IMG/VR virus record: IMGVR_UViG_3300028007_000002
Coordinates: 1-61,501 of that record
From: a virus
Length of the DNA stretch: 61,501 nt
Direction: 5' to 3' (one strand)
The notes below the pieces were generated by a model. It had not been told where the DNA came from. It worked only from the letters and a program-made list of their open reading frames with translations, and did not search any database. The position numbers were made by a program, and so were the translations under genes. Positions 18,171 to 57,351 of the stretch are shown piece by piece. Within the stretch, counting starts at the first letter, position 1. Each line of letters opens with the position of its first letter.

Positions 18171-18539
18171 ATGACGACCGAAAAGACCGAGTCCCGCGTG
18201 CTAACCCTCGATGAGATCCTGCATGCCGGCGATCTGGAGACGCTGACCGTGCCCGTCCCCGAATGGGATGGCGCGGTGGTGATCCAGTCGATGACCAAGG
18301 CGGTCCAGCAGGATCTCCGACGGAAGGCCATGAACGGCAAGGATCTCGACAACGATCGCTTCGAGATGCTGCTTTTCATCCAGTCGGTGATTGAGCCGAC
18401 CATGGGCGAGGAGCACTACGAGGCGTTGCGGCAGAAAAGCGCGACGGCGATCGATCGGGTGAACAAGGCGATCCTCAATCTGAACGGGATATCGCCGGAG
18501 GCTCAGAAGGAGGCGGACCGCTCCTTTCGCGACGAATAG
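18171..18539 (+). CDS. Tail assembly chaperone, short form (gpG-like)
   Basis: A 122-residue protein. The N-terminus carries VLTLDEILHAGDLETLTVPVPEW and the middle a helical segment (QQDLRRKAMNGKDLDNDRFE), typical of siphovirus gpG-like chaperones, which coat the tape measure before tube assembly. It lies between tube and tape measure, as expected. AGGTGA lies nine bases before the ATG; an upstream GTG at 18159 is possible. It ends in an overlap with a second frame (see next entry). Confidence 0.8.
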   Translation: MTTEKTESRVLTLDEILHAGDLETLTVPVPEWDGAVVIQSMTKAVQQDLRRKAMNGKDLDNDRFEMLLFIQSVIEPTMGEEHYEALRQKSATAIDRVNKAILNLNGISPEAQKEADRSFRDE

Positions 18540-18708
18540 CGAGCAGCGCTTTCTCTACCGCCTGGCGCGCGACCTCAAGACGACGGTCGCGGAGTTGGAG
18601 CGGCGGATGACGGTCCGCGAGTTCAACCGCTGGCTGGCGTTCTACAACCACGAGGCCCGCGAAGAGAAAAAGGCGGCCGAACGGGCCAAGCGCCGTCGCG
18701 GGCGATAA
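18484..18708 (+). CDS. Frameshift extension of the tail chaperone (gpT-like)
   Basis: A frame open from 18484 to 18708, +1 (or -2) relative to the chaperone, without any usable start codon. After the short-form stop it encodes SEQRFLYRLARDLKTTVAEL and MTVREFNRWLAFYNHEAREE, the expected gpT-like C-terminal part. It must be made by a programmed frameshift between 18484 and 18539. A candidate slip site is TTT-C at 18525, with the Shine-Dalgarno-like AAGGAGG upstream at 18507. The gpG-gpGT pair by frameshift is known in many siphoviruses, most often -1. Confidence 0.7.
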   Translation, partial: TGYRRRLRRRRTAPFATNSEQRFLYRLARDLKTTVAELERRMTVREFNRWLAFYNHEAREEKKAAERAKRRRGR

Positions 18709-18712
18709 CCCC

Positions 18713-18744
18713 CCGAGAGGCCGGAGCCCGAGAGGCCGGAGCCC
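18713..18744 (+). repeat. Intergenic repeat GAGGCCGGAGCC, copy 5
   Basis: Two perfect tandem units GAGAGGCCGGAGCCC just before the hairpin at the tape measure start. Confidence 0.65.
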
Positions 18745-18766
18745 ACTTCGTTTGGAGTGGGCTTTT
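18741..18766 (+). terminator. Hairpin with T-tract overlapping the tape measure ribosome binding site
   Basis: GCCCACT (18741-18747) pairs with AGTGGGC (18756-18762), followed by TTTTCC. It has the form of a weak intrinsic terminator. The GGAG that would serve the TTG start at 18770 lies in and beside the 3' arm, so the hairpin can also mask translation initiation. Either effect would lower tape measure expression relative to the tube. Confidence 0.5.
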
Positions 18767-18769
18767 CCT

Positions 18770-21700
18770 TTGTCCGAAATCGCCAAACTCTTCGTAAAAA
18801 TCGGCGCCGACGTCAAGGACGCAATGTCCGGCTTCGACGCCGTTCACAGCCGAATTGAGTCATTCGGCAAGTCGGCGGCGACGACCGGCGCGGTCATGAC
18901 GGCCGGCCTGACCGTGCCGTTGCTGGGCACGGCGAAGGCGGTTGGTGACGTCGGGATTTCTTTCGAGTCGGCTTTCGCTGGCGTACGGAAGACGATCGAT
19001 GCGACTGAGGAAGAGTTCGCCCAACTGCGGACCGGGATCCGCGACATGGCCAAAGAGATCCCGACGGCCCGGGAGGAGATCGCCGGCGTGGCCGAGGCAG
19101 CCGGGCAGCTCGGCATCGCGAAGGAAAGCGTTCTCGGTTTCACCCGCACGATGGTGGACTTGGGCGTCGCGACAAATCTGACCGCCCGGGAAGCGGCCAC
19201 CGATCTGGCGCGGTTCGCCAACATCACTCGGATGCCCCAGACCGAGTTCCAAAACCTCGGCTCGACGATTGTGGCGCTCGGAAATAACTTCGCGACGACC
19301 GAGCGCGAGATCGTGGCGATGGGCATGCGCATCGCCGGCGCTGGATCAACGGTCGGGATGACGCAGTCCCAGATTATGGGCTTCGCGACGGCCCTGTCGA
19401 GCGTGGGCATCGAGGCAGAAGCCGGCGGCACGGCGATCTCGCGGGTGTTCGTGGACATCGCCAATGAGGTGGCCTCGGGCGGCAAAAAGCTGACGGAATT
19501 CGCCAAGGTCGCTGGCATGTCCGCGTCTGAGTTCTCGGATCGGTTTAAGACCGACGCCGCCGGCGCCGTGACGGCTTTCATCGGCGGGCTGGGGAGGATT
19601 CGGGACAGCGGTGAGAACGTCTTCGCGGTCTTGGAGAAGCTCGACATGAGCGACATCCGGGTTCGCGACGCGCTGCTCCGATCGGCCGGTGCGGGGGATC
19701 TGCTCGGTGACGCAATCGCCTTGGCAAGCAAGGCCTGGGATGAGAACAACGCGCTGACCAAAGAGGCCGAGCAGCGGTACGCGACGGTGGAGTCGATGCT
19801 CCAGATCGCCAAGAACAAGTTCACGGATCTGGGCATCACGATCTTCGATCGGGTGCGGCCGGCGTTGGTCTCGGCTCTCGGGATTGTCGAGGGAGTCACC
19901 GGCGGACTCAAGGGACTCATCGATCGGTTGGCCGAGGCTGATCCGCGACTTCTCGCGGCCGGCGCTGCCTTCCTCGGCGTATTGGCTGCGGCCGGCCCGG
20001 TGATCGGCATCGTGGGCGCACTGGCGACTGGATTGGCATTCTTGATGACTCCGATCGGGCTGATTGTGGCCGGGGTGGCGCTGCTTGCCGCCGCCTTTGC
20101 CGCAGATTTCCTGGGCATCCGGACAACGGTCCTCGGCTTCGTGGCAGCCGTGCAGCCGATCCTCTCCGCGTTCCTGGCTTTTCTCTCGACAGGCAGCTTC
20201 AGTTCCCTCGCCGACTTCAGCGCCGCTATCACCAAGGCGTTCGGCCCGGATGCGGTGGCTCTTGCGTTCGGCTTCGCCACCCAGGTTCAAGCAGCTCTCG
20301 AGAAGGTGAAGGCGATCGCCGCCGGCTTTGCCTCCGGCGGATTAGCCGGCGGAGCGACGAGCATCCTGTCTCAGATCTTTGGGATGGACGAGGATGCCGC
20401 GACCGGACTCATCCAGCGCGTCACCGGTCTGATAGGCCGCGTGGTGTCCACCGCTCAAGAGGTGATCGGTGCGTTTGCGTCCGGCGGCCTGGCCGGCGGC
20501 GCCATGAAGATCGGTGAAATCCTGGGCCTGGACGAAGCCGAAATCGGCCGAATTGTGGGGCTGGTGAGTTTCGCTTTCGGCGAGATCGTCAGCTTCGCCC
20601 AGACCCACCTGCTGCCAGGCCTCATGAACGTCGGGTCGGCTATTCAGTCCAACGTGATCCCAGCCATCATCCAGATTGGCCAGTTCGTGGTGACCGAGGT
20701 CATACCACGATTGGCGGAGCTGGAGGCGATGATCGCCTCCCGAGTCGTCCCCATTTTGACCCAGTTGGCGGGGTTCCTGATCGGGAACGTCGTCCCGGCT
20801 ATCCAGCAACTCGCGGCGAATTTCCAGAAGTTCGTGGGAGAGATTCTCCCACTAATCGGGCCAGCCATGGACGGTCTGATGAATAACATCGCGACTGTTT
20901 TGGCGGCTATCAGTGCCTTCTGGCAGGAACACTGGACTTCGATCCAGCGGGTGTTGCAGTCCACCTGGGACGTGCTCAAGAGCGTGGTCGAAGTGGGGCT
21001 GACGCTGATCTCGGGGTTAATCAAGACCATCTTGCGTGTGATCGCCGGGGATTGGGAAGGCGCTTGGGACGAGCTGAAAGCCACTCTGGAGAAAACCTGG
21101 CAGGTGATGCAATCGAACCTGGAGACATCTCTGATCCGGTTTGGGGCACTGATCATCGAGGGCCTCAAAACGCTGGAGTCCAAAGGCCGGGAGGCTGCTC
21201 AAGCGATCGGTCGGGCCATCGTGGACGGCATCACCGGGGCGCTCAATGCCGGATGGAGCAAGATCCAGGAGGCGGCCAGCGGGCTGGCGGACGCGATCCC
21301 CTCGACCGTTAAGAGCATTCTCGGGATCCGCTCACCGTCTCGGGTCATGTCCGAGCACGGGACCCAAGTGGTGGCCGGCCTGGCCCAGGGCATTACATCG
21401 AAGAAGGATCTGGTCAACGCGGCCACCAAGTCTCTCTCAATGGGTCTGATCGAAGAGTCGCAGAAACTGCTTCGGATGACCGAAGACATCGGCAAGCAGA
21501 TGCCGGTCCGGATCGCGGCCGGCATCCGGGCCGCCGAGAAAAAGTCCATCTACGCGGTAGAGAGTTTTGGTGACCGGCTCAATCGGTCATTCCACGATGA
21601 CAATCTGAGCTTCAAAGACGTGCTCTCGGAGCACTACGGCGTGCCCTATCTTGAGTCGATCTTTCAGGCCGGCCAAACGGAACTAAACCGCGTCTACGCC

Positions 21701-32055: not shown

Positions 32056-32268
32056 TCACACTAAGTCAACGCTCCCAGGCGCCGCACGAGCCCGACCACT
32101 GAAGGTCGGGCTCTTTTTTTGTGCCTCACGCAAGAGGATCACGAGCTGGGCATTCAAACTCCTCAGCTCATGGCCCGCCAAGCTCACCAGCCAGTCATGC
32201 AGATCGGGCGGGAGTCGCACGGTTAGCCGGACCGACTCATCGCCTTGGGGTGTTCTGAATTGCGCCAT
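32056..32268 (-). CDS. Ribbon-helix-helix regulator
   Basis: A 70-residue protein with the Arc/MetJ-type layout: strand ESVRLTVRLPPDLHDWLVSL then a helix with HELRSLNAQLVILLREA. Such proteins bind operators as dimers. Its gene is divergent from the accessory block, and TTATAG/CTATAA half-sites lie on its 5' side (32275, 32310, 32321), overlapping the divergent promoter, so autoregulation and control of that block are likely. The 3' end overlaps the terminator of the lysis gene on the other strand. Confidence 0.7.
   Translation of the reverse strand: MAQFRTPQGDESVRLTVRLPPDLHDWLVSLAGHELRSLNAQLVILLREAQKKSPTFSGRARAAPGSVDLV
32088..32120 (+). terminator. Intrinsic terminator of the late operon
   Basis: GAGCCCGACC (32088-32097), loop ACTGAA, GGTCGGGCTC (32104-32113), then seven T. 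Perfect ten-base stem. It ends the structural and lysis transcription unit. Confidence 0.9.
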
Positions 32269-32287: not shown

Positions 32288-32316
32288 TTGACACCACTGG
32301 CGATAGGCACTATAAT
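32288..32316 (+). promoter_or_regulatory. Sigma70-type promoter of the accessory block
   Basis: TTGACA (32288-32293), 17-base spacer, TATAAT (32311-32316): both hexamers match the consensus exactly. CTATAA repeats lie in and after the -10 element at an 11-base distance, and TTATAG lies before the -35 element, as expected for operators of the ribbon-helix-helix protein. GTGTTGACACC at 32285 is shared with the promoter at 34298. Confidence 0.85.
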
Positions 32317-32361: not shown

Positions 32362-32529
32362 ATGGCCCGCACACTTGTCCAACAATCGTGGATTGACGCG
32401 ACCGAGGTGGACTTCGAGGTCTGCCCCGGCTGCGAGGGGTGCGACGAGTGCGTCGGCCACCCCGTAGATTGCACGGGATGCGACGCCTGCATCCCGTTCG
32501 CGTCCCTGGTCCGGCGGGAGGTGGCCTAA
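32362..32529 (+). CDS. Cysteine-rich small protein
   Basis: A 55-residue protein, first gene after the consensus promoter, with AGGGAGG before the ATG. Residues 21-44 contain seven cysteines in CxxC spacing (CPGCEGCDEC, then CTGCDAC). It could bind zinc or an iron-sulphur cluster; the CxxCxxCxxC spacing recalls ferredoxin-type sites, but the following CP is missing. Its stop overlaps the next ATG (TAATG). Confidence 0.6.
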   Translation: MARTLVQQSWIDATEVDFEVCPGCEGCDECVGHPVDCTGCDACIPFASLVRREVA

Positions 32530-33239
32530 TGGTCACTTTCGCGAAAGTCACCAACTACGACAACTCCCAGGCGCAGCGGCCGCTGCCCTGGGAGGGAGTC
32601 TCAGCCTGGGCTTGCTGGGACTCCGACGCCGTCATCCGGCTCGGGGAGTTCTACCCCGATCTGGTGATCGGGGAAATCGCCCAGCCGGCCGGAACGGTGG
32701 CCTGGGCCCTCCGGTTCTCGGAAGCAGACAACTACGTCTGCCACGAAACGGAGGACCTGCACCTCCGGCCGATCCCCGAGAGGTTCGACGCCGACCGGCA
32801 CTGGATCAAGGTGCCGGCGGCCGGCAGCCTCGGGACCTGCCCCTGCGGCTGCGGGGCACTGGAGGACATCTGCCCTCCGGTGGTCGCGGAGTGGCAGGTC
32901 CTGTTCGTGGCTCCTGAGGAGTCGCGGCGCCTGGAGCGCTTCCTCCTGCTTTCGTGGCAGGGGGACGGGCTCCACGCCCTCCGCGACCGGATCCGGACGG
33001 CCTTAGAACCGGTCGTCGGGACGGATTACTCCGATCTCGACATCAACGTGGAGTGGGTGGACGCCGATACCGCCCACTTCACGGTCGACGGGGGGCGACA
33101 GACCGGCGCCCCCCGTTACGAGCCACTGGTGACAGTGGCCGTCAGCCTAACCAGTTCCGCAGTCAGGCTGGTGGACTTCGCTGACAGCGAGTTCGCCAGC
33201 GCTGCACTGCCACTAGTGGCAGAATACTTCGCCCAATAA
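32529..33239 (+). CDS. Accessory protein with C-rich insert, unknown function
   Basis: A 236-residue protein. An aromatic N-terminal half (LPWEGVSAWACWDSD) and a CPCGCGALEDICP insert near residue 103. The C-terminal part is alpha/beta. I do not recognise the family. Its DNA holds several perfect inverted repeats, such as CTGCCACTAGTGGCAG near 33209, and is part of a hairpin-dense block. Confidence 0.5.
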   Translation: MVTFAKVTNYDNSQAQRPLPWEGVSAWACWDSDAVIRLGEFYPDLVIGEIAQPAGTVAWALRFSEADNYVCHETEDLHLRPIPERFDADRHWIKVPAAGSLGTCPCGCGALEDICPPVVAEWQVLFVAPEESRRLERFLLLSWQGDGLHALRDRIRTALEPVVGTDYSDLDINVEWVDADTAHFTVDGGRQTGAPRYEPLVTVAVSLTSSAVRLVDFADSEFASAALPLVAEYFAQ

Positions 33240-33251
33240 AGGAGGGACACC

Positions 33252-33800
33252 GTGGAAGCTCGGCTCATCAACCTGACACCCCACGCCGTGACGATCGTCA
33301 CGGCGGAAGGGGAGATCACAGTTCCGCCGTACGGGAGGACCATACGGCGGGAGGAGACGCGGGAGACGGTCGATACCGCCCACTCGGGCGGTATCGACAT
33401 CCCGATCACCCGCGTGACCCTCAGGGGGCTGGATGAGTGGGATCTCATCCTCCCGTCCGAAAACATGGTGCCCTGCGAGTGCGGGCACTTCTCGTACGAT
33501 CACGAGGATACAGAAGACTGTATTTATCGTGAGGATTGCGGCTGTCTGGGTTTTTTACCAGACAGCCAGTGTGAGTGCGGGCACCACGCCCGCACTCACG
33601 AGTACGCCATGGTGGACTGCCGTGAGTGCGGCTGTCGGCGGGTCAAAGACCGCCGACAGACACTCCTGATCGTGTCCCGCCTGGTGGCAGAGGCCTGCCC
33701 CGAGCGGGACGACCTGGTCGTTCCAGACGATACGGTCCGTGACGACGCGGGCCGGATCATTGGCTGTCGGGCGCTGGCCCGGGTGGGGCGCGCGCTGTGA
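33252..33800 (+). CDS. INLTPH-type phage protein with zinc-ribbon insert
   Basis: A 182-residue protein with GGAGG seven bases before the GTG start. Residues 5-15 (LINLTPHAVTI) match the start of a family of small phage proteins of unknown function. After residue 75 there are four zinc-type clusters: CECGHFSYDH, CIYREDCGCLGF, CECGHHARTH, CRECGCRR. The C-terminal LIVSRLVAEACPERDDLVVP and GRIIGCRALAR belongs again to the INLTPH family, so the zinc region is an insertion. The insertion is encoded by consecutive perfect hairpins (33540-33659). Confidence 0.6.
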   Translation: MEARLINLTPHAVTIVTAEGEITVPPYGRTIRREETRETVDTAHSGGIDIPITRVTLRGLDEWDLILPSENMVPCECGHFSYDHEDTEDCIYREDCGCLGFLPDSQCECGHHARTHEYAMVDCRECGCRRVKDRRQTLLIVSRLVAEACPERDDLVVPDDTVRDDAGRIIGCRALARVGRAL

Positions 33801-34033
33801 CGCGCGTCCGCCATTGGCACCTCTGCCGGGTGAGTTTCGATCCCGTGGGAGCCGTAACTCACCCCACCCAGCGCGAGGCCGACGCCACGGCCTCTGCTTA
33901 TCTCCGGCGCCGGCTCAACCGCGAGTTTGCCGAGCGGTTGATCGCCCAACTGCCCGGCAACTCGGTCCAGTTGGGCGAGGAAGATTATCTGGCGGTTCGG
34001 CCCTGCGCCGGCCGCTGCGAGGTGTTGTCATGA
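33797..34033 (+). CDS. Small protein, unknown function
   Basis: A 78-residue protein starting in a GTGA overlap and ending in an ATGA overlap. Helical middle (QREADATASAYLRRRLNREF), then a short strand. No family recognised. Confidence 0.5.
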   Translation: MTRVRHWHLCRVSFDPVGAVTHPTQREADATASAYLRRRLNREFAERLIAQLPGNSVQLGEEDYLAVRPCAGRCEVLS

Positions 34034-34281
34034 CGGACGCCCTAGCCGCGGAACTGGCCGAAGCCCTGACCAGCCTCCTCCGCACAATCCAGCCGGTCAC
34101 CCGTCCGGGCAAGACGGACCGGCAGGGCCGGCGGAGCAAGATCGCCACCTGCTCCGTCTGCCGGGACGGCGAGTGGCTCGCTTGGCCGCCGGATCTGGCC
34201 GAGCCCGAGTCCCACGCGCCGTGGTGCGCGATCGGGCGGGCTCGCGAGGCGCTGGAGCGGGTCCGCGATCAATCCACCTAA
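34030..34281 (+). CDS. Small zinc-binding-type protein
   Basis: An 83-residue protein; CSVC near residue 43 and a later HAPWC could form one zinc site. ATGA overlap with the previous gene. Last gene of the transcription unit begun at 32288; a second promoter follows at once. Confidence 0.5.
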   Translation: MTDALAAELAEALTSLLRTIQPVTRPGKTDRQGRRSKIATCSVCRDGEWLAWPPDLAEPESHAPWCAIGRAREALERVRDQST

Positions 34282-34293
34282 CCGCTTAATTCA

Positions 34294-34326
34294 GGTGTTG
34301 ACACCTGTCAACACCTATGGTAGACT
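34294..34326 (+). promoter_or_regulatory. Sigma70-type promoter with palindromic operator
   Basis: TTGACA (34298-34303), 17-base spacer, TAGACT (34321-34326). A near-perfect inverted repeat GGTGTTGACA-CC-TGTCAACACC (34294-34315) covers the -35 element and spacer, so a dimeric repressor bound there would block transcription. A further GGTGT half-site lies downstream at 34331. GTGTTGACACC also occurs at the 32288 promoter. Confidence 0.82.
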
Positions 34327-34372
34327 AAAGGTGTAAGGCCGGACGGACCGGCCGCACCGAAGGAGAGAGGCG

Positions 34373-34618
34373 ATGACCACTTCGACCCGCGCCATCCGGA
34401 ACATGTCCGGCGGCGAGGCTTGGGAGAGCTTCGTCGGCCGGCAGAGTGTAGACGAGTTCACCTCGGCCTACGCCGAGATGGGCATCTCGGACGTGGCCGA
34501 GATGGTCGGCGATTACGTCGCCGACCTGAACCGAGCGTCCAGTCACACCCACTCCGATGAGGAGTTGGGCGTGATCGCCGAGAAGCTGGCGGAGTACATC
34601 CGCCGCCAGCGCGCCTAA
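34373..34618 (+). CDS. Small acidic helical protein
   Basis: An 81-residue protein with GGAGAGAGG before the ATG. Acidic helices (DEFTSAYAEMGISDVAEMVG; SDEELGVIAEKLAEYIRRQR). No family recognised. First gene behind the operator-bearing promoter. Confidence 0.55.
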   Translation: MTTSTRAIRNMSGGEAWESFVGRQSVDEFTSAYAEMGISDVAEMVGDYVADLNRASSHTHSDEELGVIAEKLAEYIRRQRA

Positions 34619-34677
34619 ACCACCCGCCTGCCGGGTGAGCCACCGCCCGGCAGGGCATCAGCCAACGGAGAGAGAAA

Positions 34678-34986
34678 ATGAGCACGACCTATTTCCACGT
34701 CGCCGACAGATCCTACAAACCCGGCGAGGATCTGTTTTGTTGGGACGAACTGGAGCGTCTCGGCTGTGCGCCAGAGTGGAAATGGGAAGAGGCCGACATT
34801 GGATTCGACGGCGACGTGGTTTGTCTCTTCGAGTCGCTGGATCAGGCGCGGGAGTTTCAGGCCGTCCATAACCCGGACGGAATTATCCTCCGGGTCGAGT
34901 TGCCCGATCCCGCGCCGGTCCGTGTCGAAGAGGGCTATCCGGCCGTTTATGGTCGGATCCCGGCAGCCTATATCCGTCCGGCGTGA
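34678..34986 (+). CDS. Small accessory protein, unknown function
   Basis: A 102-residue acidic protein with AACGGAGAGAG upstream. YKPGEDLFCWDELERLG and ESLDQAREFQAVHNPDGIIL give an alpha/beta layout. I recall similar small phage proteins of unknown function. A nine-base perfect hairpin (CCTGCCGGG/CCCGGCAGG) lies in the gap before it. Confidence 0.55.
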   Translation: MSTTYFHVADRSYKPGEDLFCWDELERLGCAPEWKWEEADIGFDGDVVCLFESLDQAREFQAVHNPDGIILRVELPDPAPVRVEEGYPAVYGRIPAAYIRPA

Positions 34987-35020
34987 CCACCGCGCCGGGC
35001 CAGCAATCGAGGAGAGAGAC

Positions 35021-35227
35021 GTGAGTACGACACTCGACATCATCGCGGAGCGCACCACCGGTACCCGGACAATCGCCGGCACCGACTGGCCGATCATCGA
35101 TCGTGTTTGGCGGAACGGTCCGCGCTCGTGGATCTACGTGCGCGGGCTGTGCAACGGTATTCCGGCTGCAAGCTCGGAGTACCGGACCAAGCGCGAGGCG
35201 CTCGAAGCCTACGAGTGGGACGAATAA
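35021..35227 (+). CDS. Small protein, unknown function
   Basis: A 68-residue protein starting with GTG after GAGGAGAGAG. Its first residues (STTLDIIAERTTGTRTIAGT) and aromatic second half show no known family. Its leader is like those of the two preceding genes (CGGAGAGAG), so the three share expression signals. Confidence 0.5.
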   Translation: MSTTLDIIAERTTGTRTIAGTDWPIIDRVWRNGPRSWIYVRGLCNGIPAASSEYRTKREALEAYEWDE

Positions 35228-35302
35228 GCCCAATCGTCCGGCGTGGTGACTCACGCCGGACAACTCGCTTGAAGGCGTCTCGGCTCTGGACGAGGGAAGA
35301 AA

Positions 35303-36301
35303 ATGAAAATCCTTATGATTACGCACGACTGCCAGCGGGCCGCCGCTGGCTCCATCACGGAGCGGCGTTGCGAACGCTGCTCCGCGGAGTGGGCTGAGGT
35401 ACGGGAACTCCCGTACCAAATCCCACAAAACCGGTGGCCCAAAATCTGGGACGCGGTGGTTGTTCGGGCCGGCACGAGTCGAACCGGCCTTCACGAAGCC
35501 ACCATTCGGCCGGAGGCCGGGTTCCTGCCCACTCGGCCAACACGGGATCCGGCGCGGGCCGCCGCATCCGTTCTGCCCGGCCCAATTGAATTGGTGCCGA
35601 CCGAATTCGCCGACCGTCCATGGGCCACATGGACGGTTGACGAACCGTTCAAGCACATCGTGGCCGCCGTTCCAGCCGGCGGCCAGAGTCCCCACAAACC
35701 GGAGATCAAGCCCACACTTGAGTGTGGACTCTGCTACCGGGATCGGCTGGAGGCGACCGGCCTCCGGCAGGGCCACCTGTTTGTGGCCCTCCTCCACACC
35801 AACCTTTGCCACCGCCTCTCGGCGGACGGGCAGTATTGCTTCACGCCGTCCGTGGAGCACCCTGTCCCGTGCCAGCGTTGCAGTCGCTGGCCGTGGGATC
35901 ATCCCGCACCCACGCGGGACGGGGAAATCCACGGTTACGTCCCAGCGGGCGGGAAGCCGTTGTCAGCGCTCGCCCACACCTTCGAGGGTCATTACAGCCC
36001 TCGAATCCGAAGCCCTCACCAGGAGGGCGCATCGAGGCTCTATTTTGAGCCTCAATACGACAAGATTGACCCAGAGGATCGGGGCGCCGTCTGGCGGGAC
36101 GGAGACACCATCCGGATATTCAACCACAGAATTGCTCCCGCCCAGGAGGTTGAGGTTACCTGGCGCGGGAACATCGGGACCATATCCGCCAAGGCGGATG
36201 TCCTGGTGACGAGTCCCGATCACCCAGACGAGACCCTTCGTCTGGGTGACGGGACCTACGAATGGTACCACCCCTGGCCGTCACGGGACGGCCGGGATTA
36301 G
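35303..36301 (+). CDS. Zinc-motif protein encoded by a chain of hairpins
   Basis: A 332-residue protein that I do not recognise. It has scattered zinc-type motifs (RRCERCSAEW near 22, LECGLCYRDRL near 138, PCQRCSRWPW near 188) and a C-terminal beta-like part (DTIRIFNHRIAPAQEVEVTW). AGGGAAG precedes the ATG. The DNA is remarkable: more than 20 different perfect or near-perfect inverted repeats, with arms of 6-11 bases and short loops, follow one another through the whole frame. Other frames also stay open here for long stretches, so the coding assignment is less sure than its length suggests; the forward frame is preferred for its binding site and zinc motifs. Confidence 0.5.
   Translation: MKILMITHDCQRAAAGSITERRCERCSAEWAEVRELPYQIPQNRWPKIWDAVVVRAGTSRTGLHEATIRPEAGFLPTRPTRDPARAAASVLPGPIELVPTEFADRPWATWTVDEPFKHIVAAVPAGGQSPHKPEIKPTLECGLCYRDRLEATGLRQGHLFVALLHTNLCHRLSADGQYCFTPSVEHPVPCQRCSRWPWDHPAPTRDGEIHGYVPAGGKPLSALAHTFEGHYSPRIRSPHQEGASRLYFEPQYDKIDPEDRGAVWRDGDTIRIFNHRIAPAQEVEVTWRGNIGTISAKADVLVTSPDHPDETLRLGDGTYEWYHPWPSRDGRD
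35331..36293. repeat. Array of unrelated perfect inverted repeats (hairpins)
   Basis: Examples: 35331-35350 GCCAGCGG/CCGCTGGC; 35398-35417 GGTACGGGA/TCCCGTACC; 35613-35637 ACCGTCCATG/CATGGACGGT; 35661-35685 TGGCCGCC/GGCGGCCA; 35769-35790 AGGGCCAC/GTGGCCCT; 35982-36004 TCGAGGG/CCCTCGA; 36034-36053 GAGGCTC/GAGCCTC; 36184-36199 ATCCGCC/GGCGGAT; 36213-36255 GTCCC..CACCCAGACGA/TCGTCTGGGTG..GGGAC; 36276-36293 GGCCGTC/GACGGCC. The arms differ from hairpin to hairpin, so this is not a repeat family but a repeated structure. Confidence 0.8.
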
Positions 36302-36311
36302 GAGGGCTGAG

Positions 36312-36605
36312 GTGGACTACGAACGAAAGTATTTCGTGCAATTCTATCTAGGTTCCGGCCGGCCCACCGGCCATGTCTGCCGGAACCATCACGTCGTTGT
36401 CCCGGTGCCCGGCTGGACGGTCGGCGGCTACGAGGGCCGGGGCGATTCAGGCAAGACCCTCTGTGTCCACAATGACACGGAGGGATCTCTCTGGACAGCC
36501 GCCGACGTGGAAGCGGATTTCGAGTCCGCTTTCTACGCCGGGGAGCATGACGCGGGCTTCCACGAGCGGGAGGCCCGGCCCAATTGCCCAAATTGCTCCA
36601 GCTAA
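36312..36605 (+). CDS. Small accessory protein, unknown function
   Basis: A 97-residue protein; the GTG at 36312 has AGGAGG six bases upstream. RKYFVQFYLGSGRPTGHVCR and CPNC near the end suggest a compact, possibly zinc-binding, fold. A nine-base inverted repeat (GGTTCCGGC/GCCGGAACC) lies within its first third. Confidence 0.55.
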   Translation: MDYERKYFVQFYLGSGRPTGHVCRNHHVVVPVPGWTVGGYEGRGDSGKTLCVHNDTEGSLWTAADVEADFESAFYAGEHDAGFHEREARPNCPNCSS

Positions 36606-36609
36606 CCCA

Positions 36610-36651
36610 CCCAAAAGCCCGGACGGTGTGGCAACCGTCCGGGCTTTTGGG
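36610..36651. terminator. Long perfect hairpin, probable bidirectional terminator
   Basis: CCCAAAAGCCCGGACGGT (36610-36627), loop GTGGCA, and the exact complement ACCGTCCGGGCTTTTGGG (36634-36651). An 18-base perfect stem with TTTT in each arm's outer part. GCGTCCA/TGGACGC forms a further hairpin directly after it. It separates the hairpin-dense genes from the endonuclease gene. Confidence 0.75.
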
Positions 36652-36680
36652 CGTCCACCGTGGACGCGGAGGGAGACAAT

Positions 36681-37115
36681 TTGTCTGAGGCAAAGCGTCC
36701 GAGCCGCCCTTGGCCGTCGCTTGAGGAGCGGCTCTGGCGGCAGGTCGATCGGACGGGTGACTGCTGGCTCTGGACGGGTAACGCCAGCCTCGGCGGCTAC
36801 GGCTCAATCGGCGTTTCTCCCGAGCGACGGCGCGAACTCGTTCACCGGGTTGTCTGGGAACTGACCCATGGCCCAATCCCGGAAGACCGGCACGTCTCTC
36901 GCCTCTGCGGCCAGAAACTCTGTGTCCGCCCATCTCACCTGCAACTCAGCGCAACGGCTCCGGAGCCGCCCCGGCCACGGCTCACGGCAAAGGAGAGGGT
37001 AAAAATCCGCGCCGCCCTGGCCTCGGGCAAAACGCACCGAGAATTTGCCAACCGATTCCATGTCAGCGCAGCGACGATTGGGCGTATTGCCCGGAGAGTT
37101 GAAAATGGACACTGA
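36681..37115 (+). CDS. HNH endonuclease (homing-type) with C-terminal helix-turn-helix
   Basis: A 144-residue protein. The HNH_3 core is clear: CWLWTGNASLGGYGSIG, HRVVWELTHGPIPEDRHVSR, LCGQKLCVRPSHLQL. This is followed by a linker and a helix-turn-helix (IRAALASGKTHREFANRFHV, SAATIGRIARR). Such free-standing enzymes are common in phages as mobile elements. A TTG at 36681 with GGAGGGAG upstream is the likely start; a GTG at 36660 is possible. Confidence 0.8.
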   Translation: MSEAKRPSRPWPSLEERLWRQVDRTGDCWLWTGNASLGGYGSIGVSPERRRELVHRVVWELTHGPIPEDRHVSRLCGQKLCVRPSHLQLSATAPEPPRPRLTAKERVKIRAALASGKTHREFANRFHVSAATIGRIARRVENGH

Positions 37116-37569
37116 CACCAAGCCCGCCCAGAAGCGCCCGACCGTCTCGTTCCGGGACTTGGCCATGGAGCAGCGGGAGTTGGCACCACGCGCGGGTGAT
37201 GACTCGCTCGGCCTAATTGCTCAGCGGGACCTTGGCCGATATTACGAGGTGCTCCGGCGAGAATTGGCATCCATTGATCTGACGGAGGGTGAGGCCCTCC
37301 TGATCATGGAGGCTTGCAACGGCACCTACTGGGAGCCCCACACGATACCGCTCCTCTGGGCCGAGGTGGCGGATCATGTCCAACTCGAGAACGCCCACAT
37401 CAGGTGGCAGGTGGACGAAATGGCCCTCGTCCACAAGCTCCGCGCCCTGACGCCCGCCCAAGCGTTCGCCGTGGTGGACGCGATCGAGCGGGCTTGGCTG
37501 CACCCATCCGGGGATGCGGTCGAGGCGCTCCGGGCGGTTGGATTACTTCGTGACCCAAAGGGGGAGTGA
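37105..37569 (+). CDS. Accessory protein, unknown function
   Basis: A 154-residue protein overlapping the HNH gene by 11 bases; GGAGAG lies before the ATG. It is helical; the segment LTEGEALLIMEACNGTYWEP is a recurring phrase in small phage or actinobacterial proteins of unknown function, followed by ALTPAQAFAVVDAIERAWLH. Last gene of the + strand accessory block. Confidence 0.55.
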   Translation: MDTDTKPAQKRPTVSFRDLAMEQRELAPRAGDDSLGLIAQRDLGRYYEVLRRELASIDLTEGEALLIMEACNGTYWEPHTIPLLWAEVADHVQLENAHIRWQVDEMALVHKLRALTPAQAFAVVDAIERAWLHPSGDAVEALRAVGLLRDPKGE

Positions 37570-37590
37570 ATAGTCTTCGGACATCCCAGC

Positions 37591-37626
37591 AAGAAGCCTG
37601 TTCACCCCTGAATGAACAGGCTTCTT
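37591..37626. terminator. Bidirectional terminator between accessory block and CRISPR operon
   Basis: AAGAAGCCTGTTCA (37591-37604), loop CCCCTGAA, TGAACAGGCTTCTT (37613-37626). A perfect 14-base stem between converging transcription units; the last bases of cas6e overlap it. Confidence 0.85.
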
Positions 37627-38309
37627 CAATCACGGGGAATCAGACCGATCGAGAGCAGGCCGAAGCCAAAGGCTTTGCCCGACCCGATGCCCTGACGCAG
37701 CGTGGCGCGGAACCGATCGGCGTCGGTGATAACCAACTCCCCCGCGAAGAGCACCGATCCGAATGTCAGCCGGCCGGGCGAGGCCGGCTTGCCGTCCCCA
37801 GTCTGTTTGATCTCCGGGGTGACGGAGTGTTGGGCGAGCCGGAAGCCGCCGGCCTCGCCCTTACGAATGAGCCAGGCGATCTGTTCGGCCTCGGCGCGAA
37901 ACACGATCCGTTTGCCGTTCCAGCGGCTTGCCTCGACGCGGTTAGCAGGCAGGCGTTTGGTGGGATTGGCACGGAGCCGGAAACGCAGACGATCGCCGGC
38001 CCGAAGGCTCTCCCAATACCCATGGTGCGACTCGACCGCGGGGTTGCGGATCAGCCTGCCGGCCGTATCGGCCAAGTACTCGGACCACAACCGCGACCAA
38101 TCGGGATACACTGCCGATTGAACAATGACGACCAAGCCATCCTCCGGCCACTGATCGACGCGATAGAGTACACCGAGAGTTGCGCGGGCATCCGGATTAA
38201 TCATCTCGGGAAAGGCGCTCAGGATGGTCCGATGAAGTTGTCGGCAATCGGCCAGATCGCGCCGGACATGCGGATCGCTGAGATTGAGGATCAGGCGGGA
38301 CAGATACAT
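37626..38309 (-). CDS. cas6e: CRISPR endoribonuclease Cas6e (CasE)
   Basis: A 227-residue protein with the full Cas6e pattern. MYLSRLILNLSDP at the start; DCRQLHRTILSAFP with His26 at the place of the catalytic His of characterised Cas6e; VLYRVDQ and VIVQSAVYPDW; LRAGDRLRFRLRANPTKR; and the C-terminal glycine loop GIGSGKAFGFGLLSI. Cas6e cuts type I-E pre-crRNA at the repeat hairpin. No other type I-E gene (cse1, cse2, cas5e, cas7e, cas3) is present. It is the last of nine coupled genes, starting in a TGATG overlap with the cas6 gene. Confidence 0.92.
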   Translation of the reverse strand: MYLSRLILNLSDPHVRRDLADCRQLHRTILSAFPEMINPDARATLGVLYRVDQWPEDGLVVIVQSAVYPDWSRLWSEYLADTAGRLIRNPAVESHHGYWESLRAGDRLRFRLRANPTKRLPANRVEASRWNGKRIVFRAEAEQIAWLIRKGEAGGFRLAQHSVTPEIKQTGDGKPASPGRLTFGSVLFAGELVITDADRFRATLRQGIGSGKAFGFGLLSIGLIPRD

Positions 38310-39070
38310 CAGTCCGCCTGCACGGGAAGTATCTGAGGGCAAACAGCGGTAGGACGACGGAGGGGAGCTGGGGTCTCCCACACGCTGACCGGATCGCCTT
38401 CACGCCATCGCTCATACTGTGCGAGGATGCGCAGTCGGCCGTACCCGTAACCGGTCTGATGTCCAACACCGCGATACTCGCCGAACCGAAACAGCGTCCA
38501 GACAATGGCCTGCTGCTCAGGCTCAAGTCGCCAGAGATCAAAGCGCACCAGCCCCAGGAATCCCAATCGTCGCTCTCCGGCGGCCCCAGTCCCCGGACGC
38601 TGCAACAGATCACCGACTGGCGCAACCGCGATGCGGCGCAACGCGACGTCGGGCAGTTCGGGCGTCTCTAGCCAGCCGAGCGCATTCCACCGTAGGGTCA
38701 GACTTCGGTAGATCTTGCTGTACTCGGGAATTAGATGATCGTTGTCGCTGGTCCGAAATCGGGTCGGTGTCGTGAAAGCGATCCAGATCGCTTTGCCGCC
38801 CGCCGGCTGACAGAAATCAGCCATGCGCACCCGTCGAATCAGCCGCGCGGCGGGTTCACCAGACAAGAGCGCCTGGGCGATGTCGTCCTGGCAGGCTATC
38901 ACATCCAAACTGGTTTGCCGTCGAACAACCGAGTAAGGCCGGACTTCATCCGGGTGATGAAGTCGCTGGGCGAGATCGAGATCGACCCGACCAACCGTGG
39001 AAATCACGCGCTCGATCGGGTCAGATTGATAGCCGGGGTAGGGCAGGCGGACAACGGTGATAGCAGTCAT
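38309..39070 (-). CDS. cas6: CRISPR endoribonuclease Cas6
   Basis: A 253-residue protein of the Cas6 family found in type I-A/I-B/I-D and type III systems. The central WIAFTTPTRFR and SLTLRWN elements are typical. The C-terminal domain has LGFLGLVRFDLW and GEYRGVGHQTGYGYGRLRI, the glycine-rich loop. It would cut CRISPR repeat RNA. A second, differently classed Cas6 (Cas6e) directly follows, an arrangement I do not know from any described operon. The catalytic residue cannot be fixed without alignment. Starts in an ATGA overlap with the methyltransferase gene. Confidence 0.85.
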   Translation of the reverse strand: MTAITVVRLPYPGYQSDPIERVISTVGRVDLDLAQRLHHPDEVRPYSVVRRQTSLDVIACQDDIAQALLSGEPAARLIRRVRMADFCQPAGGKAIWIAFTTPTRFRTSDNDHLIPEYSKIYRSLTLRWNALGWLETPELPDVALRRIAVAPVGDLLQRPGTGAAGERRLGFLGLVRFDLWRLEPEQQAIVWTLFRFGEYRGVGHQTGYGYGRLRILAQYERWREGDPVSVWETPAPLRRPTAVCPQILPVQAD

Positions 39071-51268: not shown

Positions 51269-51997
51269 ATGAACGACGTCAAGGCTTTGACGGAGGCGCT
51301 GTCAAAGCCCTTCCCGAAAGAGGCGATCAAGAAACGCGAGGGGGCTCGCGGGAAAATGCTCGACTACGTTGAGACGCACACGGTTATCCACCGGCTGATT
51401 GAGGCGACCGATAACCAGTGGTCGCTGTCCGTCAATCGGCTGGAAAAGCAGGGCAACGTCCTGGTGGCGGTGGTCGAGCTAACGATTCCGGGGCTGGGCA
51501 CCCGGAGTCACATCGGCGTCCAAGCGGTGGCCGAGAAGAGTGGCGAGGATTTGATCAAAGGCGCGATCAGTGACGGCCTTAAGAAGGCCGCCACATTATT
51601 CGGCGTTGGCCTGGAGCTTTACGGTCCGGACTACGAGGGAATAGCCGAGTCCAAAAGTGCCGCCACCACTCCGGCCCGACCCGCTCCGGCTCCGCCGAGC
51701 GCCCCTCCCGTCAACCCCCCGGCCCAGAATGGGCACACGCCCTCGGGCAAGGGATCGGCGCTCGCCGGAAATACGCTTGATGACGTCTTCGGCCCGTCGC
51801 CGAATACACTGATCCAGCGTGATCAGGCGATCGAGATCTGCGACCTGCTTAAAGAGACTGGCGCGAACGTCGAGTCGTTCAAGAGGCATTTCGGGATCCC
51901 CGCGATTGAGGACCTGACCATTGAGCAGTATCCCGAAGCTCGTCGAATGCTCCTGACGAAAGCGGCCAAACTGGCTCAGAACAGGACAGGACGCTGA
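51269..51997 (+). CDS. Single-strand annealing protein (Rad52/22-like)
   Basis: A 242-residue protein. The N-terminal 120 residues hold ALSKPFPKEAIKKREGARGK, LDYVETHTVIHRLIEATDNQ and GEDLIKGAISDGLKKAATLF, GVGLELYG: the core of Rad52-type recombinases, which anneal complementary single strands. The middle is Pro/Ala-rich linker, and the C-terminal 70 residues (DQAIEICDLLKETGANVESF) form a helical domain often fused in phage annealing proteins. AGAGGAAGG before the ATG; coupled to the helicase by TGATG. Confidence 0.88.
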   Translation: MNDVKALTEALSKPFPKEAIKKREGARGKMLDYVETHTVIHRLIEATDNQWSLSVNRLEKQGNVLVAVVELTIPGLGTRSHIGVQAVAEKSGEDLIKGAISDGLKKAATLFGVGLELYGPDYEGIAESKSAATTPARPAPAPPSAPPVNPPAQNGHTPSGKGSALAGNTLDDVFGPSPNTLIQRDQAIEICDLLKETGANVESFKRHFGIPAIEDLTIEQYPEARRMLLTKAAKLAQNRTGR

Positions 51998-54378
51998 TGA
52001 CCACTGAGAGCAGCGCTCCAACCCTCGGCACTGCGATCCGACTTCTGGCCGGCCGCTGTGATTGGGCGAATAGCCTCGACGGCGCTGGGTTCAACGCCGC
52101 TGACGCCGCTTTTGGGCACAGCCTCGCAGGGCAGGCGGAAGAGGAGTGGTCACCGAAGAAACGGCGGGCCGCCTGGAAGATGCTCCGAAAATACCGCGGC
52201 CAGTTGAGCGGGGCCGGCATCAACTTCGATGCGATCCCGGAACCGCCCGAATCAGACCCAAGCCATCACCTGGCAATCGTTCCAAAGACGCTGGCACCGA
52301 TCGCGCCAGCGTCACCACCGATAGTTGCGGCATTCACGCCGCAACTGACGATCCGGGGAATTCTCGGACCCGGCGGTGTCATTGCCCGACAGCTCCCCGG
52401 CTACGAGTGCCGCGATCCCCAGATCCAGATGGCCGAGCTGGTCGAGGCGGCGATCGCTAAGAGTCGGCATGCGGCCATCGAGGCGGGCACGGGTACAGGT
52501 AAGAGCCTCGGCTACCTGGTGCCAGCCATTCTGAGTGGTCAGCGGACCGTGTGTAGCACCGCCGACAAAGCCCTTCAAGTGCAGATCTGGGCGAAGGACA
52601 TTCCGTTCCTCCAGTCGGTCTTGCCCCAGCCATTCCGGGCAGCCATCCTGAAGGGCCGATCGAACTATCTCTGCCTCCATCGTTTCGCGGAGATGAGCGA
52701 CCAACTGTCGGGATCCCTGCCAGGGATGGCCGACGTGGCACTTTTCAAGAGCACCGACGCGGCACTGGCCTGGCCCGAGGTGGTCACCTGGGCGGCCGAG
52801 ACGAACACCGGGGATCTGGAGACAGCGCCCTTCGCGGTGCCCCTCGACCTCTGGTCGGATCTGACGGTGGACTCGGATTCATGCCTCGGCAAACGCTGTC
52901 CGCAGTTCGGGAACTGCTGGGTCGAGAAGGCCAAGACCAAAGCCAGTGAGGCTGAGGTGATCATCGTGAATCACGCTCTCCTGCTACGGGATCTGGAACT
53001 CCGCTTCCAGACCGACGGCCACGCCAGCGTCCTGCCAGATGACGTCTCAGTCATCGTCCTCGATGAGGCGCACCATCTGGAGGACATCGCAACGAACGCG
53101 TTCGGCGTTGAGATCAGTCTCGGCCGATGGACGCGGATAGCCCGCCGGATTGAGAACCTGACGGTCAAGCACAAAGCGGTCAAGGGGCAGCCAAGCGGGA
53201 CCGAGGACCAGGACGAGGCCGAGAAATGGAGCCTCAAAGCCGGTGCGGTTCAGTCCCAGATGGAGAGCCTGTTCGGGGCAATTCAGGATCGCTTCGCTGA
53301 GTCTCGGTCGGCGTCGATGATCCTGAGGGATGAGCGTCCGATCGCGAACGCGGCGCTTCAGGCCCTCCGATTCTTTACGGAAGAGATCAAAGGTGGCGCG
53401 CTCCACTGGCTGACACCTGACCAGCAGACCAGTTGGGGGAAGCTCGGCGACCAGACCGATCGGCTGACGGGTCACCTTGAGTGGGTCGTGACACCGGGCA
53501 CCGAGGATGTGTTGGTGCGCTTCGCGGAGTTGAGTAACGGCCGGATCGTTCTGCACGCGAAGCCGATCGACGTATCTGACCTTCTTGCGGAGCGGCTTTT
53601 CGAGGTGTTCCCAACGGTGATCGCCACCTCGGCCACCATTGCGACCGACGCCGGCATGGCCTACTGGCGGTCGCGGGTAGGGCTTGAGCAGGTCGACGAA
53701 CTAATTGTGTCCAGTCCATTCGACTACCGTCGCGCGGCGCTGATCTATCTCCCTCAGGATGGACAGAGCTTTGATCCGAGCCGCTTCCGGCAGGAGGGCA
53801 GCATCGAGTACGTCGAGCGCCTGGCCGGCGAGATCGAGCGCCTCCTGCTAGCGTCAGACGGTCGAGCCTTCGTCTTGTTCACCAGCTTCCGTATCCTGCG
53901 GGATGTCTACGATCGGCTGGCTCCACGGCTCCGGTGGACCTTGCTCCGGCAAGGTGATCTACCGCGTCCCGAACTGGTTCGGCGATTCCGCGAGGACACC
54001 CATAGCGTCCTCTTCGGGGTCAAATCGTTCTGGGAAGGCGTCGATGTGCAAGGCGAGGCGTTGAGCCTCGTGATCATCGACAAACTGCCCTTCACGCCAC
54101 CAGACGATCCGATCTGGGCGGCTCGCTGTGACGCGGTGAACCGCGCGGCCAATGATCGCTGGGCCTGGTTCAACCAGCTTGCCATCCCGGTCGCCACCAT
54201 CGCCCTCAAACAGGGTTTTGGTCGGCTGATTCGCACCAAGACCGATCGGGGCGTGGTGGCCATTTTGGATGGCCGGCTGACCACGAAACCCTACGGCCGA
54301 CGCATCGTGAGGAGCCTACCGCCGGCGACGGTGACGCGCAGTCTCGACGCGGTGCGCGCTTTTTTTGGGGCGTCATGA
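51997..54378 (+). CDS. DinG-like iron-sulphur helicase
   Basis: A 793-residue superfamily 2 helicase. Walker A AIEAGTGTGKSLGYLVPAIL near residue 165; four cysteines of the XPD/DinG iron-sulphur domain (YLCLH, then DSCLGKRCPQFGNCW near 295); DEAHHLED near 355; SATIATDAG, FTSFRILRDVY; and the C-terminal GVKSFWEGVDVQGEALSLVI and QGFGRLIRTKTDRGVVAILD. It unwinds DNA 5' to 3'. The first 110 residues are an extra N-terminal region. It belongs to the replication/recombination operon, but DinG-type helicases are also components of type IV-A CRISPR, and this genome encodes a type IV operon. Confidence 0.9.
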   Translation: MTTESSAPTLGTAIRLLAGRCDWANSLDGAGFNAADAAFGHSLAGQAEEEWSPKKRRAAWKMLRKYRGQLSGAGINFDAIPEPPESDPSHHLAIVPKTLAPIAPASPPIVAAFTPQLTIRGILGPGGVIARQLPGYECRDPQIQMAELVEAAIAKSRHAAIEAGTGTGKSLGYLVPAILSGQRTVCSTADKALQVQIWAKDIPFLQSVLPQPFRAAILKGRSNYLCLHRFAEMSDQLSGSLPGMADVALFKSTDAALAWPEVVTWAAETNTGDLETAPFAVPLDLWSDLTVDSDSCLGKRCPQFGNCWVEKAKTKASEAEVIIVNHALLLRDLELRFQTDGHASVLPDDVSVIVLDEAHHLEDIATNAFGVEISLGRWTRIARRIENLTVKHKAVKGQPSGTEDQDEAEKWSLKAGAVQSQMESLFGAIQDRFAESRSASMILRDERPIANAALQALRFFTEEIKGGALHWLTPDQQTSWGKLGDQTDRLTGHLEWVVTPGTEDVLVRFAELSNGRIVLHAKPIDVSDLLAERLFEVFPTVIATSATIATDAGMAYWRSRVGLEQVDELIVSSPFDYRRAALIYLPQDGQSFDPSRFRQEGSIEYVERLAGEIERLLLASDGRAFVLFTSFRILRDVYDRLAPRLRWTLLRQGDLPRPELVRRFREDTHSVLFGVKSFWEGVDVQGEALSLVIIDKLPFTPPDDPIWAARCDAVNRAANDRWAWFNQLAIPVATIALKQGFGRLIRTKTDRGVVAILDGRLTTKPYGRRIVRSLPPATVTRSLDAVRAFFGAS

Positions 54379-54391
54379 CTTCCCGACTCGA

Positions 54392-54450
54392 GCCTCCCGA
54401 CTCGATCGAGTCGGGAGGCCTTGCGCTGAGCACCGGCGCGGCCGGTGCTC
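54392..54450. repeat. Palindromes between helicase and replication genes, possible origin
   Basis: GCCTCCCGACTCGA followed by its exact complement (54392-54419), a 28-base perfect palindrome; CCCGACTCGA also occurs just upstream at 54382, so the decamer occurs twice direct and once inverted. GAGCACCGGC-GCG-GCCGGTGCTC is at 54428-54450. Candidate origin iterons or a terminator without T-tract. Confidence 0.5.
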
Positions 54451-57294: not shown

Positions 57295-57351
57295 ATGCAA
57301 GTCCAGATTACCCGATCCGAGGCGACCTCGCGCGAGCACCCGACATGGTGA
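57295..57351 (+). CDS. Possible 18-residue leader peptide
   Basis: An ATG with a strong GAGGAGA site five bases before it opens an 18-codon frame that ends (ACATGGTGA) across the start codon of the following gene. The following gene has no clear ribosome binding site of its own, so the short frame may couple its translation. Confidence 0.4.
   Translation: MQVQITRSEATSREHPTW

What the first reader, a model, noticed from the sequence alone, without database searches (positions are those of the whole stretch)
32529..36660. Accessory genes built from consecutive perfect hairpins
The coding DNA of several neighbouring genes, above all 33252-33800 and 35303-36301, is a near-continuous chain of perfect inverted repeats with unrelated sequences, arms of 6-12 bases and loops of 2-10 bases. 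In 35303-36301 I count more than 20 in 970 bases; in 33540-33659 three with 10-12-base arms follow one another. The structural genes do not show this density. Because arms differ, the selected feature is the structure. Possible roles: structured transcripts that bind or titrate proteins, decoys for CRISPR/Cas6 or RNases, protection from exonucleases, or generation by template-switching.
Basis: seen in the sequence. Interest (0 to 1): 0.82.

Follow-up and report, generated by a model that had tools for sequence, protein, structure and literature searches.

The report
Hairpin-tiled phage anti-CRISPR gene cluster
A small, self-contained gene cluster in a bacterial virus, which includes an enzyme predicted to switch off the bacterium's type III CRISPR alarm, is written in DNA that folds over much of its length into short perfect hairpins; the same gene in other viruses shows the same habit with different letters, so something other than the proteins is shaping this DNA.

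Summary
Perfect stems of at least 8 bp with loops of 10 or less number 55 in the window against about 14 expected, and 24 of them lie in 32.0-36.75 kb. Codon shuffles that keep the protein never reach the counts of genes 33252-33800 and 35303-36301 (0 of 1000); local folding is about 8 SD below codon shuffles. The signal is confined to one accessory transcription unit and absent from the structural genes.

Gene 33252-33800 is a Crn4-family ring nuclease (profile E 2.8e-27 to a solved Crn4; Foldseek E 5e-10; catalytic His/Arg kept), a probable anti-type III CRISPR protein, with a Cys/His-rich insert. In two other phages (L003, L084) the Crn4 gene is again a chain of perfect hairpins with unrelated arms. 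Among 37 Crn4 homologues fetched by protein similarity, 9 are hairpin-rich against 18 of 465 neighbouring genes (p 4e-5).

Best guess: nucleotide-level selection for folded transcripts of counter-defence genes, supported by G.U-over-A.C wobbles and recurrence. The main rival, template-switch mutation, is not excluded: folding is strand-symmetric and no clean compensatory changes were seen. What the hairpins do is inferred, not shown.

The parts
32088..32113 (+). intrinsic terminator that closes the late genes, upstream border of the unit
   Evidence: 10-bp stem followed by T7
32288..32316 (+). promoter of the accessory unit, TTGACA-17-TATAAT
   Evidence: 12 of 12 consensus positions; consensus match only
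32362..32529 (+). 55-aa Cys-rich protein gene; one 9-bp hairpin at 32473-32497
   Evidence: open frame with ribosome-binding site; hairpin; gene not significant alone
32529..33239 (+). 236-aa protein of unknown function; hairpin-rich
   Evidence: 7 stems >=7 bp vs 1.07 expected, p 0.001; folding z -8.7/-7.0 on the two strands
33252..33800 (+). Crn4-family ring nuclease gene (182 aa), hairpin-rich
   Evidence: Crn4 by profile and fold; 5 stems >=8 bp vs 0.28-0.31 expected
33426..33665 (+). Cys/His-rich insert in the Crn4 gene (approximate borders): two CxCGH..HE..C..CGC repeats; holds the three consecutive 10-12-bp hairpins
   Evidence: absent from aligned homologues; Pfam FAM221 E 6.5e-5, below its cut-off
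33284..33305 (.). perfect 11-bp palindrome CGCCGTGACGA/TCGTCACGGCG
33369..33398 (.). perfect hairpin, 13-bp arms, loop 4
33540..33567 (.). perfect hairpin, 10-bp arms, loop 8
33571..33599 (.). perfect hairpin, 12-bp arms, loop 5
33632..33659 (.). perfect hairpin, 10-bp arms, loop 8
33797..34033 (+). 78-aa protein gene, start overlaps the Crn4 stop; not hairpin-rich
34030..34281 (+). 83-aa protein gene; no hairpins
34293..34326 (+). second promoter (34298-34326, 10 of 12) overlapping an 11-bp perfect palindrome (34293-34316), operator-like
34373..34618 (+). 81-aa protein gene, hairpin-rich
   Evidence: 3 stems >=8 vs 0.68, p 0.002
34678..34986 (+). 102-aa protein gene; weak folding excess only
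   Evidence: z -2.3/-1.8; no stem >=7
35021..35227 (+). 68-aa protein gene; at chance
35303..36301 (+). 332-aa Cys/His-containing protein gene without known relatives; most hairpins of all
   Evidence: 12 stems >=7 vs 1.12, 7 stems >=8 vs 0.35; z -8.3/-9.3; no relatives
36220..36249 (.). perfect hairpin, 12-bp arms, loop 6, extended by a flanking helix in the predicted fold
36312..36605 (+). 97-aa protein gene; weak folding excess
   Evidence: z -2.7/-2.0
36610..36651 (.). 18-bp perfect hairpin that ends the unit
   Evidence: no T-run, not called as terminator

Best explanation
The island (about 32.1-36.65 kb) is a self-contained accessory ('moron'-like) transcription unit of a phage with a serine integrase, placed just after the late-gene terminator. 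One of its genes is a Crn4 ring nuclease that would degrade the cyclic oligoadenylate alarm of type III CRISPR (shown by homology and kept catalytic residues; activity inferred). The DNA of this unit, coding and non-coding, has been driven at nucleotide level into successive short, nearly perfect hairpins with arbitrary arms (shown statistically). Most likely this is selection for folded nucleic acid, chiefly the transcript: single-stranded stretches are hidden, so that RNA-guided type III complexes find few accessible sites and the ssRNA-cutting nucleases they switch on (Csm6/Csx1 type) degrade this message slowly until the ring nuclease it encodes clears the signal. Selection on folding is inferred with moderate support; the shielding role is inference without direct support.
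For: Excess against codon shuffles and z about -8 to -9; sharp borders that follow one transcription unit; Crn4 identity (PMC12830947); recurrence with unrelated arms in L003 and L084 and in cyanophage Ma-LMM01; Crn4 genes as a family more hairpin-rich than their neighbours, 9/37 vs 18/465, Fisher p 4e-5; single-wobble stems favour G.T on the coding strand over A.C, 17:6 in the window and 8:5 in L003 at >=8 pairs, one-sided binomial p 0.014 for the two together and 0.024 with L084 added (0:1), against 34:32 and 20:18 at >=7 pairs in the rest of the window; hairpins cover 10.5% of translation-initiation regions vs 27.9% elsewhere.
Against: Folding is equally extreme on both strands and loops have no A bias, which fits a DNA-level or mutational cause as well. 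No clean compensatory double change was seen in close relatives. Third-codon-position conservation of hairpin arms is not significant. Initiation regions are purine-rich and would hold fewer hairpins anyway. Most Crn4 genes are not hairpin-rich, and hairpin-rich neighbours such as 35303-36301 have no known function. Type III spacer acquisition is reported to prefer structured DNA (PMC9048733), which complicates an escape role.
Confidence: 0.4

Rival explanations
1. Mutational origin: replication template switching or quasipalindrome conversion keeps turning short imperfect inverted repeats into perfect ones, and the products survive because these accessory genes are under weak protein constraint. 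The hairpins have no function.
For: Arms are perfect Watson-Crick and loops short; folding excess is the same on both strands; loops show no strand bias; amino-acid order is bent as well as codon choice, own protein with random codons 3.4 stems >=8 vs 1.4 for shuffled amino-acid order, observed 38, structural genes unaffected. Template switching can create perfect stems in one event (PMC8794818).
Against: G.T over A.C imbalance on the coding strand; restriction to particular genes and repeated association with one gene family; hairpins also over conserved residues such as PDDVIR in L003; at 13 hairpins compared between L048 and L054 the differences are single substitutions, not blocks (in structural genes).
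Confidence: 0.35
2. DNA-level design against guide-based immunity: any 30-40-base spacer taken from this DNA would be self-complementary on either strand, giving a guide RNA that folds on itself and a target that is paired.
For: Strand symmetry; 36-nt windows with MFE <= -15 make up 22%/19% of the island against 4-5% of the rest of the window, and 21%/18% in L003; hairpin size matches spacer size; a type III counter-defence gene lies inside.
Against: 78% of spacer-sized windows are not strongly folded; only one unit of the genome is affected; structured DNA is reported as preferred for type III adaptation (PMC9048733).
Confidence: 0.12
3. Ordinary regulatory hairpins (operators, terminators, known RNA elements) concentrated in one operon.
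For: Two hairpins coincide with a terminator (32088-32113) and a promoter palindrome (34293-34316).
Against: No Rfam family reaches its gathering score; arms share no sequence; most hairpins are inside coding sequence.
Confidence: 0.05
4. Chance, base composition or protein-imposed codon patterns.
For: GC of 65% raises the background of inverted repeats.
Against: 0/1000 codon shuffles and 3 dinucleotide shuffles of the window; flanking genes of the same composition show nothing.
Confidence: 0.01

Closest known systems
[quoted passage not shown] PDB 9r7b, 9sma, 9qs9)
   Same: Fold, profile, catalytic His and Arg; occurrence in phages, where it is proposed to act as an anti-CRISPR
   Different: The window copy has a Cys/His-rich internal insert of about 60-75 residues; hairpin-rich coding DNA has not been described for this family in the paper read; activity not tested
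Template-switch or quasipalindrome mutation products (PMC8794818, PMC7202029, PMC8604942)
   Same: Perfect short inverted repeats with short loops, strand-symmetric
   Different: Known as scattered events; here a dense, gene-restricted array with a coding-strand G.U preference, and no templated block was seen between relatives
Coding palindromes of Nematomorpha mitochondria (PMC6649704)
   Same: Perfect inverted repeats inside genes that still encode proteins
   Different: Those are few and up to 284 bp long; here many, with arms of 7-18 bp, in a phage
Genome-scale ordered RNA structure of RNA viruses (from general knowledge, not read here)
   Same: Pervasive folding of coding RNA not tied to particular sequences
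   Different: Here a dsDNA phage, one unit only, with mostly perfect stems on both strands
General excess of small inverted repeats in prokaryotic genomes
   Same: A mild excess is also seen here in neighbouring genes of other phages, 1.57-fold
   Different: The island genes exceed expectation 7- to 20-fold

Membership tests
Crn4 ring nuclease | Sequence profile of the family | tested here: met
   A profile of 22 homologues, window protein included, finds Crn4b at 2.8e-27, Crn4a at 1.3e-21 and Crn4 H15A at 4e-19; window protein hits PADLOC Unk_01 at 1.3e-18
Crn4 ring nuclease | Crn4 fold | tested here: met
   Model of the L003 homologue, pLDDT 97.6; the seven significant Foldseek matches are all Crn4; Z 13.2-14.1 over 109 residues. 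The window protein itself was not modelled
Crn4 ring nuclease | Conserved Thr, His and Arg of the active site (T13, H15, R112 in Crn4a) | tested here: met
   T9, H11 and R163 of the window protein; H11 invariant, T9 and R163 nearly invariant in 22 homologues
Crn4 ring nuclease | Degrades cyclic oligoadenylates | not testable with these tools
   Needs an enzyme assay
Crn4 ring nuclease | Homodimer with an extended beta-hairpin arm | not tested
   Two long strands (31-44 and 47-60) are present in the L003 model; no dimer was modelled
Template-switch (quasipalindrome) mutation products | Changes between relatives come as clustered reverse-complement blocks | tested here: inconclusive
   None at 13 hairpins of L048/L054; one two-base cluster in Ma-LMM01; no close relatives of the island
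Template-switch (quasipalindrome) mutation products | No preference for the coding strand in mismatches | tested here: not met
   G.T 25 vs A.C 11 in window and L003, one-sided p 0.014; modest numbers, and L084 gives 0:1
Transcript structure under selection | Compensatory double substitutions in relatives | tested here: inconclusive
   None seen, but little comparable divergence was available
Transcript structure under selection | Folding excess beyond protein, codon usage and composition | tested here: met
Palindromic insertion elements (REP, Rickettsia-type elements; from general knowledge) | Copies share a consensus sequence | tested here: not met
   Arms are unrelated to each other (list); the whole gene 35303-36301 matches nothing else in the window beyond its own 36213-36255 palindrome

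The most novel reading that the evidence does not exclude
Counter-defence genes of dsDNA phages are written as 'hairpin-armoured' messages: selection for folding, independent of sequence, lets the transcript of a type III CRISPR antagonist survive or go unseen while the RNA-targeting alarm is on. This would be a layer of anti-immunity carried by codon choice rather than by a protein.
Probability: 0.25. Interest if true: 0.9.

Novelty: new variant of a known kind. Interest (0 to 1): 0.7.

Why it matters
If selection made these hairpins, phages encode anti-immunity in the folding of their messages as well as in proteins, and Crn4 genes offer a ready test set. If a mutational process made them, it is a strikingly local and recurrent case of hairpin generation inside genes. 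Either way the window adds a Crn4 ring nuclease with a Cys/His-rich insert, and shows a property of one gene family's coding DNA that ordinary annotation does not see.

Tried and rejected
Conservation test: hairpin arms diverge less than background between L048 and L054 (0/92 and 10/232 vs 10.2%; long-spacer control 10.6-10.9%), but split by codon position the third-position difference is not significant (12.7% vs 17.8%), so it is not used as evidence of selection. Codon register: a tilt to registers that synonymous changes can satisfy (A 19, B 11, C 5) is only weakly informative. A first coarse wobble test gave too few stems; several thresholds were tried in the finer one and significance fades at >=10 pairs. 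Searches for relatives of 35303-36301 in viral contigs and phages found nothing; portal search nothing; DNA search of the island in phages nothing; no closer relatives of the L003 accessory gene. Dense palindromes in L011 proved to be one repeat at about 68-bp spacing, CRISPR-like, not hairpin tiling. Rfam gave only sub-threshold hits. The host was not identified; a Thermomicrobium plasmid stretch used as a control has 17 stems in 50 kb.

Full report
WHAT WAS CHECKED. The claim was that neighbouring accessory genes are a chain of perfect hairpins. I counted perfect stems (loop 0-10) over the whole window. With arms of at least 8 bp there are 55, against 13-14 in three dinucleotide shuffles; with arms of at least 10 bp, 17 against 0-1. 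24 of the 55 lie in 32.0-36.75 kb. With codons shuffled inside each gene, so that protein and codon usage stay the same, the structural genes are at expectation and four genes of the cluster are well above it: 33252-33800 (5 stems >=8 vs 0.31), 35303-36301 (7 vs 0.39), 32529-33239 (7 stems >=7 vs 1.03) and 34373-34618 (3 stems >=8 vs 0.68). Local folding energy of the three largest is 8.2-8.7 SD below codon shuffles on the coding strand and 7.0-9.3 on the other. A scan in 250-nt steps places the signal at about 32.0-36.75 kb, with z down to -10.6/-10.2, gaps at 33.75-34.25 and 34.75-35 kb, and only isolated values elsewhere. Five control phages of 62-66% GC reach at most 2-4 such stems in any 2 kb; the window reaches 12.

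WHAT THE REGION IS. The record is a 61.5-kb viral contig with terminase, SPP1-type portal, tape measure, lytic tail protein and serine integrase genes. The island follows a terminator at 32088-32113. It has a perfect-consensus promoter at 32288-32316, a second promoter-like site at 34298-34326 overlapping an 11-bp palindrome, and ends at an 18-bp perfect hairpin at 36610-36651. This is the layout of an independent accessory unit (inference). Hairpins occur in its coding and non-coding parts.

THE CENTRAL GENE. The product of 33252-33800 belongs to a phage family of unknown function in PHROGs. A model of the L003 homologue (pLDDT 97.6) significantly matches only Crn4, a ring nuclease of type III CRISPR, in the PDB; a profile of 22 homologues finds the three solved Crn4 sequences at E 2.8e-27 to 4e-19. 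The His and Arg required for activity in the published enzyme (PMC12830947) correspond to H11 and R163, with the conserved Thr at T9. The authors propose that phage Crn4 may act as an anti-CRISPR. The window copy has a Cys/His-rich insert, roughly 33426-33665, with two CxCGH..HE..C..CGC repeats, absent from the homologues it was aligned with; it carries the three large consecutive hairpins.

RECURRENCE. L003 (IMG/VR 3300045136_000861) is a distant relative, with 47-50% identity in two head-tail genes and weaker similarity elsewhere. Its Crn4 gene lies in an accessory cluster beside the lysis gene that is again a chain of perfect hairpins with other sequences: 15 stems >=8 in 2 kb; three of its four genes have p 0.003 or less at >=8 bp and the fourth 0.079 (0.004 at >=7 bp). 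In L084 (3300044960_000817, GC 73%) the Crn4 gene has 5 stems >=8 vs 0.8 expected, p 0.005, while flanking genes are not significant in stem counts. In cyanophage Ma-LMM01 the Crn4 gene gp061 has 6 stems >=7 vs 0.62, and the four neighbours tested have 0, 0, 0 and 1. Homologues were collected by protein similarity, not by hairpins, so the family can be tested with the window left out: 9 of 37 Crn4 genes are hairpin-rich (p<0.05, at least 2 stems) against 18 of 465 neighbouring genes (Fisher p 4e-5; size-matched 7 of 245, p 3e-5). Observed/expected is 2.98 vs 1.57. Without L003 and L084 it is 38 stems vs 22.5 flank-corrected, p 0.002. Some members are related to each other, so these p-values are optimistic, and most Crn4 genes are ordinary.

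RNA, DNA OR MUTATION. For selection on the transcript: stems interrupted by one wobble favour G.T on the coding strand (17 in the window, 8 in L003) over A.C (6 and 5) at >=8 pairs, while the rest of the window is balanced (34:32 and 20:18 at >=7 pairs). Hairpins cover 10.5% of translation-initiation regions vs 27.9% elsewhere, although purine-rich sites would carry fewer anyway; in that script two of the 15 start sites (33799 and L084 9965) were set 2-3 bases off. For a strand-blind cause: folding is equally extreme on both strands and loops show no A/T bias. Amino-acid order is affected too: random synonymous recoding of nine island proteins gives 3.4 stems >=8, shuffled amino-acid order 1.4 +- 0.5, observed 38; structural genes show no such difference. 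So synonymous choice does most of the work, but the proteins have yielded as well.

CLOSE RELATIVES. None was found for the island itself. L048 (the L003 contig reversed) and L054 are 90% identical over 8.4 kb of structural genes that have a milder excess; the differences at 13 hairpins of L054 are 0-2 single substitutions each, none a templated block. Arms look conserved overall, but not significantly at third codon positions. In six Microcystis phages the Crn4 hairpins turn over: a 9-bp stem perfect in five is broken by two adjacent changes in Ma-LMM01, and one C-to-A change in MaMV-DL02 switches the segment CCATnGA from an upstream to a downstream partner. No clean compensatory pair was seen.

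JUDGEMENT. Shown: the hairpin excess, its borders, its independence from protein, codon usage and composition, its recurrence with different arms, and the Crn4 identity by homology. Inferred: that folding is selected, and what it does. I favour folded transcripts of counter-defence genes that evade RNA-targeting immunity or the RNases it activates (0.4). Template-switch mutation (PMC8794818) is nearly as likely (0.35). A DNA-level design that spoils guides is possible (0.12): spacer-sized windows fold strongly four to five times more often than in the rest of the window. Type III adaptation is reported to prefer structured DNA (PMC9048733), which complicates any CRISPR-escape reading. The link to CRISPR rests on the identity of one gene in the unit; the gene with the most hairpins, 35303-36301, has no known relatives.

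Noticed in passing
window 9149-11236: The Mu F-like head protein gene matches an intein splicing domain (Pfam PF14890, E 8.5e-9), so it probably holds an intein.
   Followed up: no
window 54392-54450: A 14-bp perfect palindrome and a 10-bp hairpin follow directly behind the helicase gene 51997-54378.
   Followed up: no
window 37105-37569 and L084:9050-9487: The two accessory proteins look alike when read side by side (RRDLERYYALL / QRDLGRYYEVL, ACNGVLWTPQT / ACNGTYWEPHT), so L084 seems to share a second accessory gene with the window; no phage-record match for the window protein.
   Followed up: partly
L003:724-815; L054:2050-2175 and 3710-3810: Long intergenic stem-loops made of TAGGAAATAGGAA-like arms recur between genes of this phage lineage.
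   Followed up: no
L011:8687-9107 and 18434-19203: Arrays of the palindrome TTCAGGGGCCCCTGAA at about 68-bp spacing on both sides of a Crn4 homologue in an actinobacterial MAG, which look like CRISPR arrays.
   Followed up: no
L033:7572-8141: The same 18-bp palindrome GTGGGATACGTATCCCAC occurs twice in the frame of a Crn4 homologue and its upstream extension.
   Followed up: no
window 57345-59624: One frame joins an SNF2-type helicase to an N6/N4 DNA methyltransferase; relatives on plasmids at 30-47% identity.
   Followed up: no
L090:3998-4705 and L091:3713-4702: Thermobifida phages P318 and P1312 carry Crn4 domains with a long C-terminal extension ending in CxxCxGxG zinc-type motifs.
   Followed up: no
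window 37591-37626: A 14-bp perfect hairpin lies behind gene 37105-37569; the + strand frame 37566-38336 there is probably not a gene, since a frame of like size runs on the - strand.
   Followed up: no
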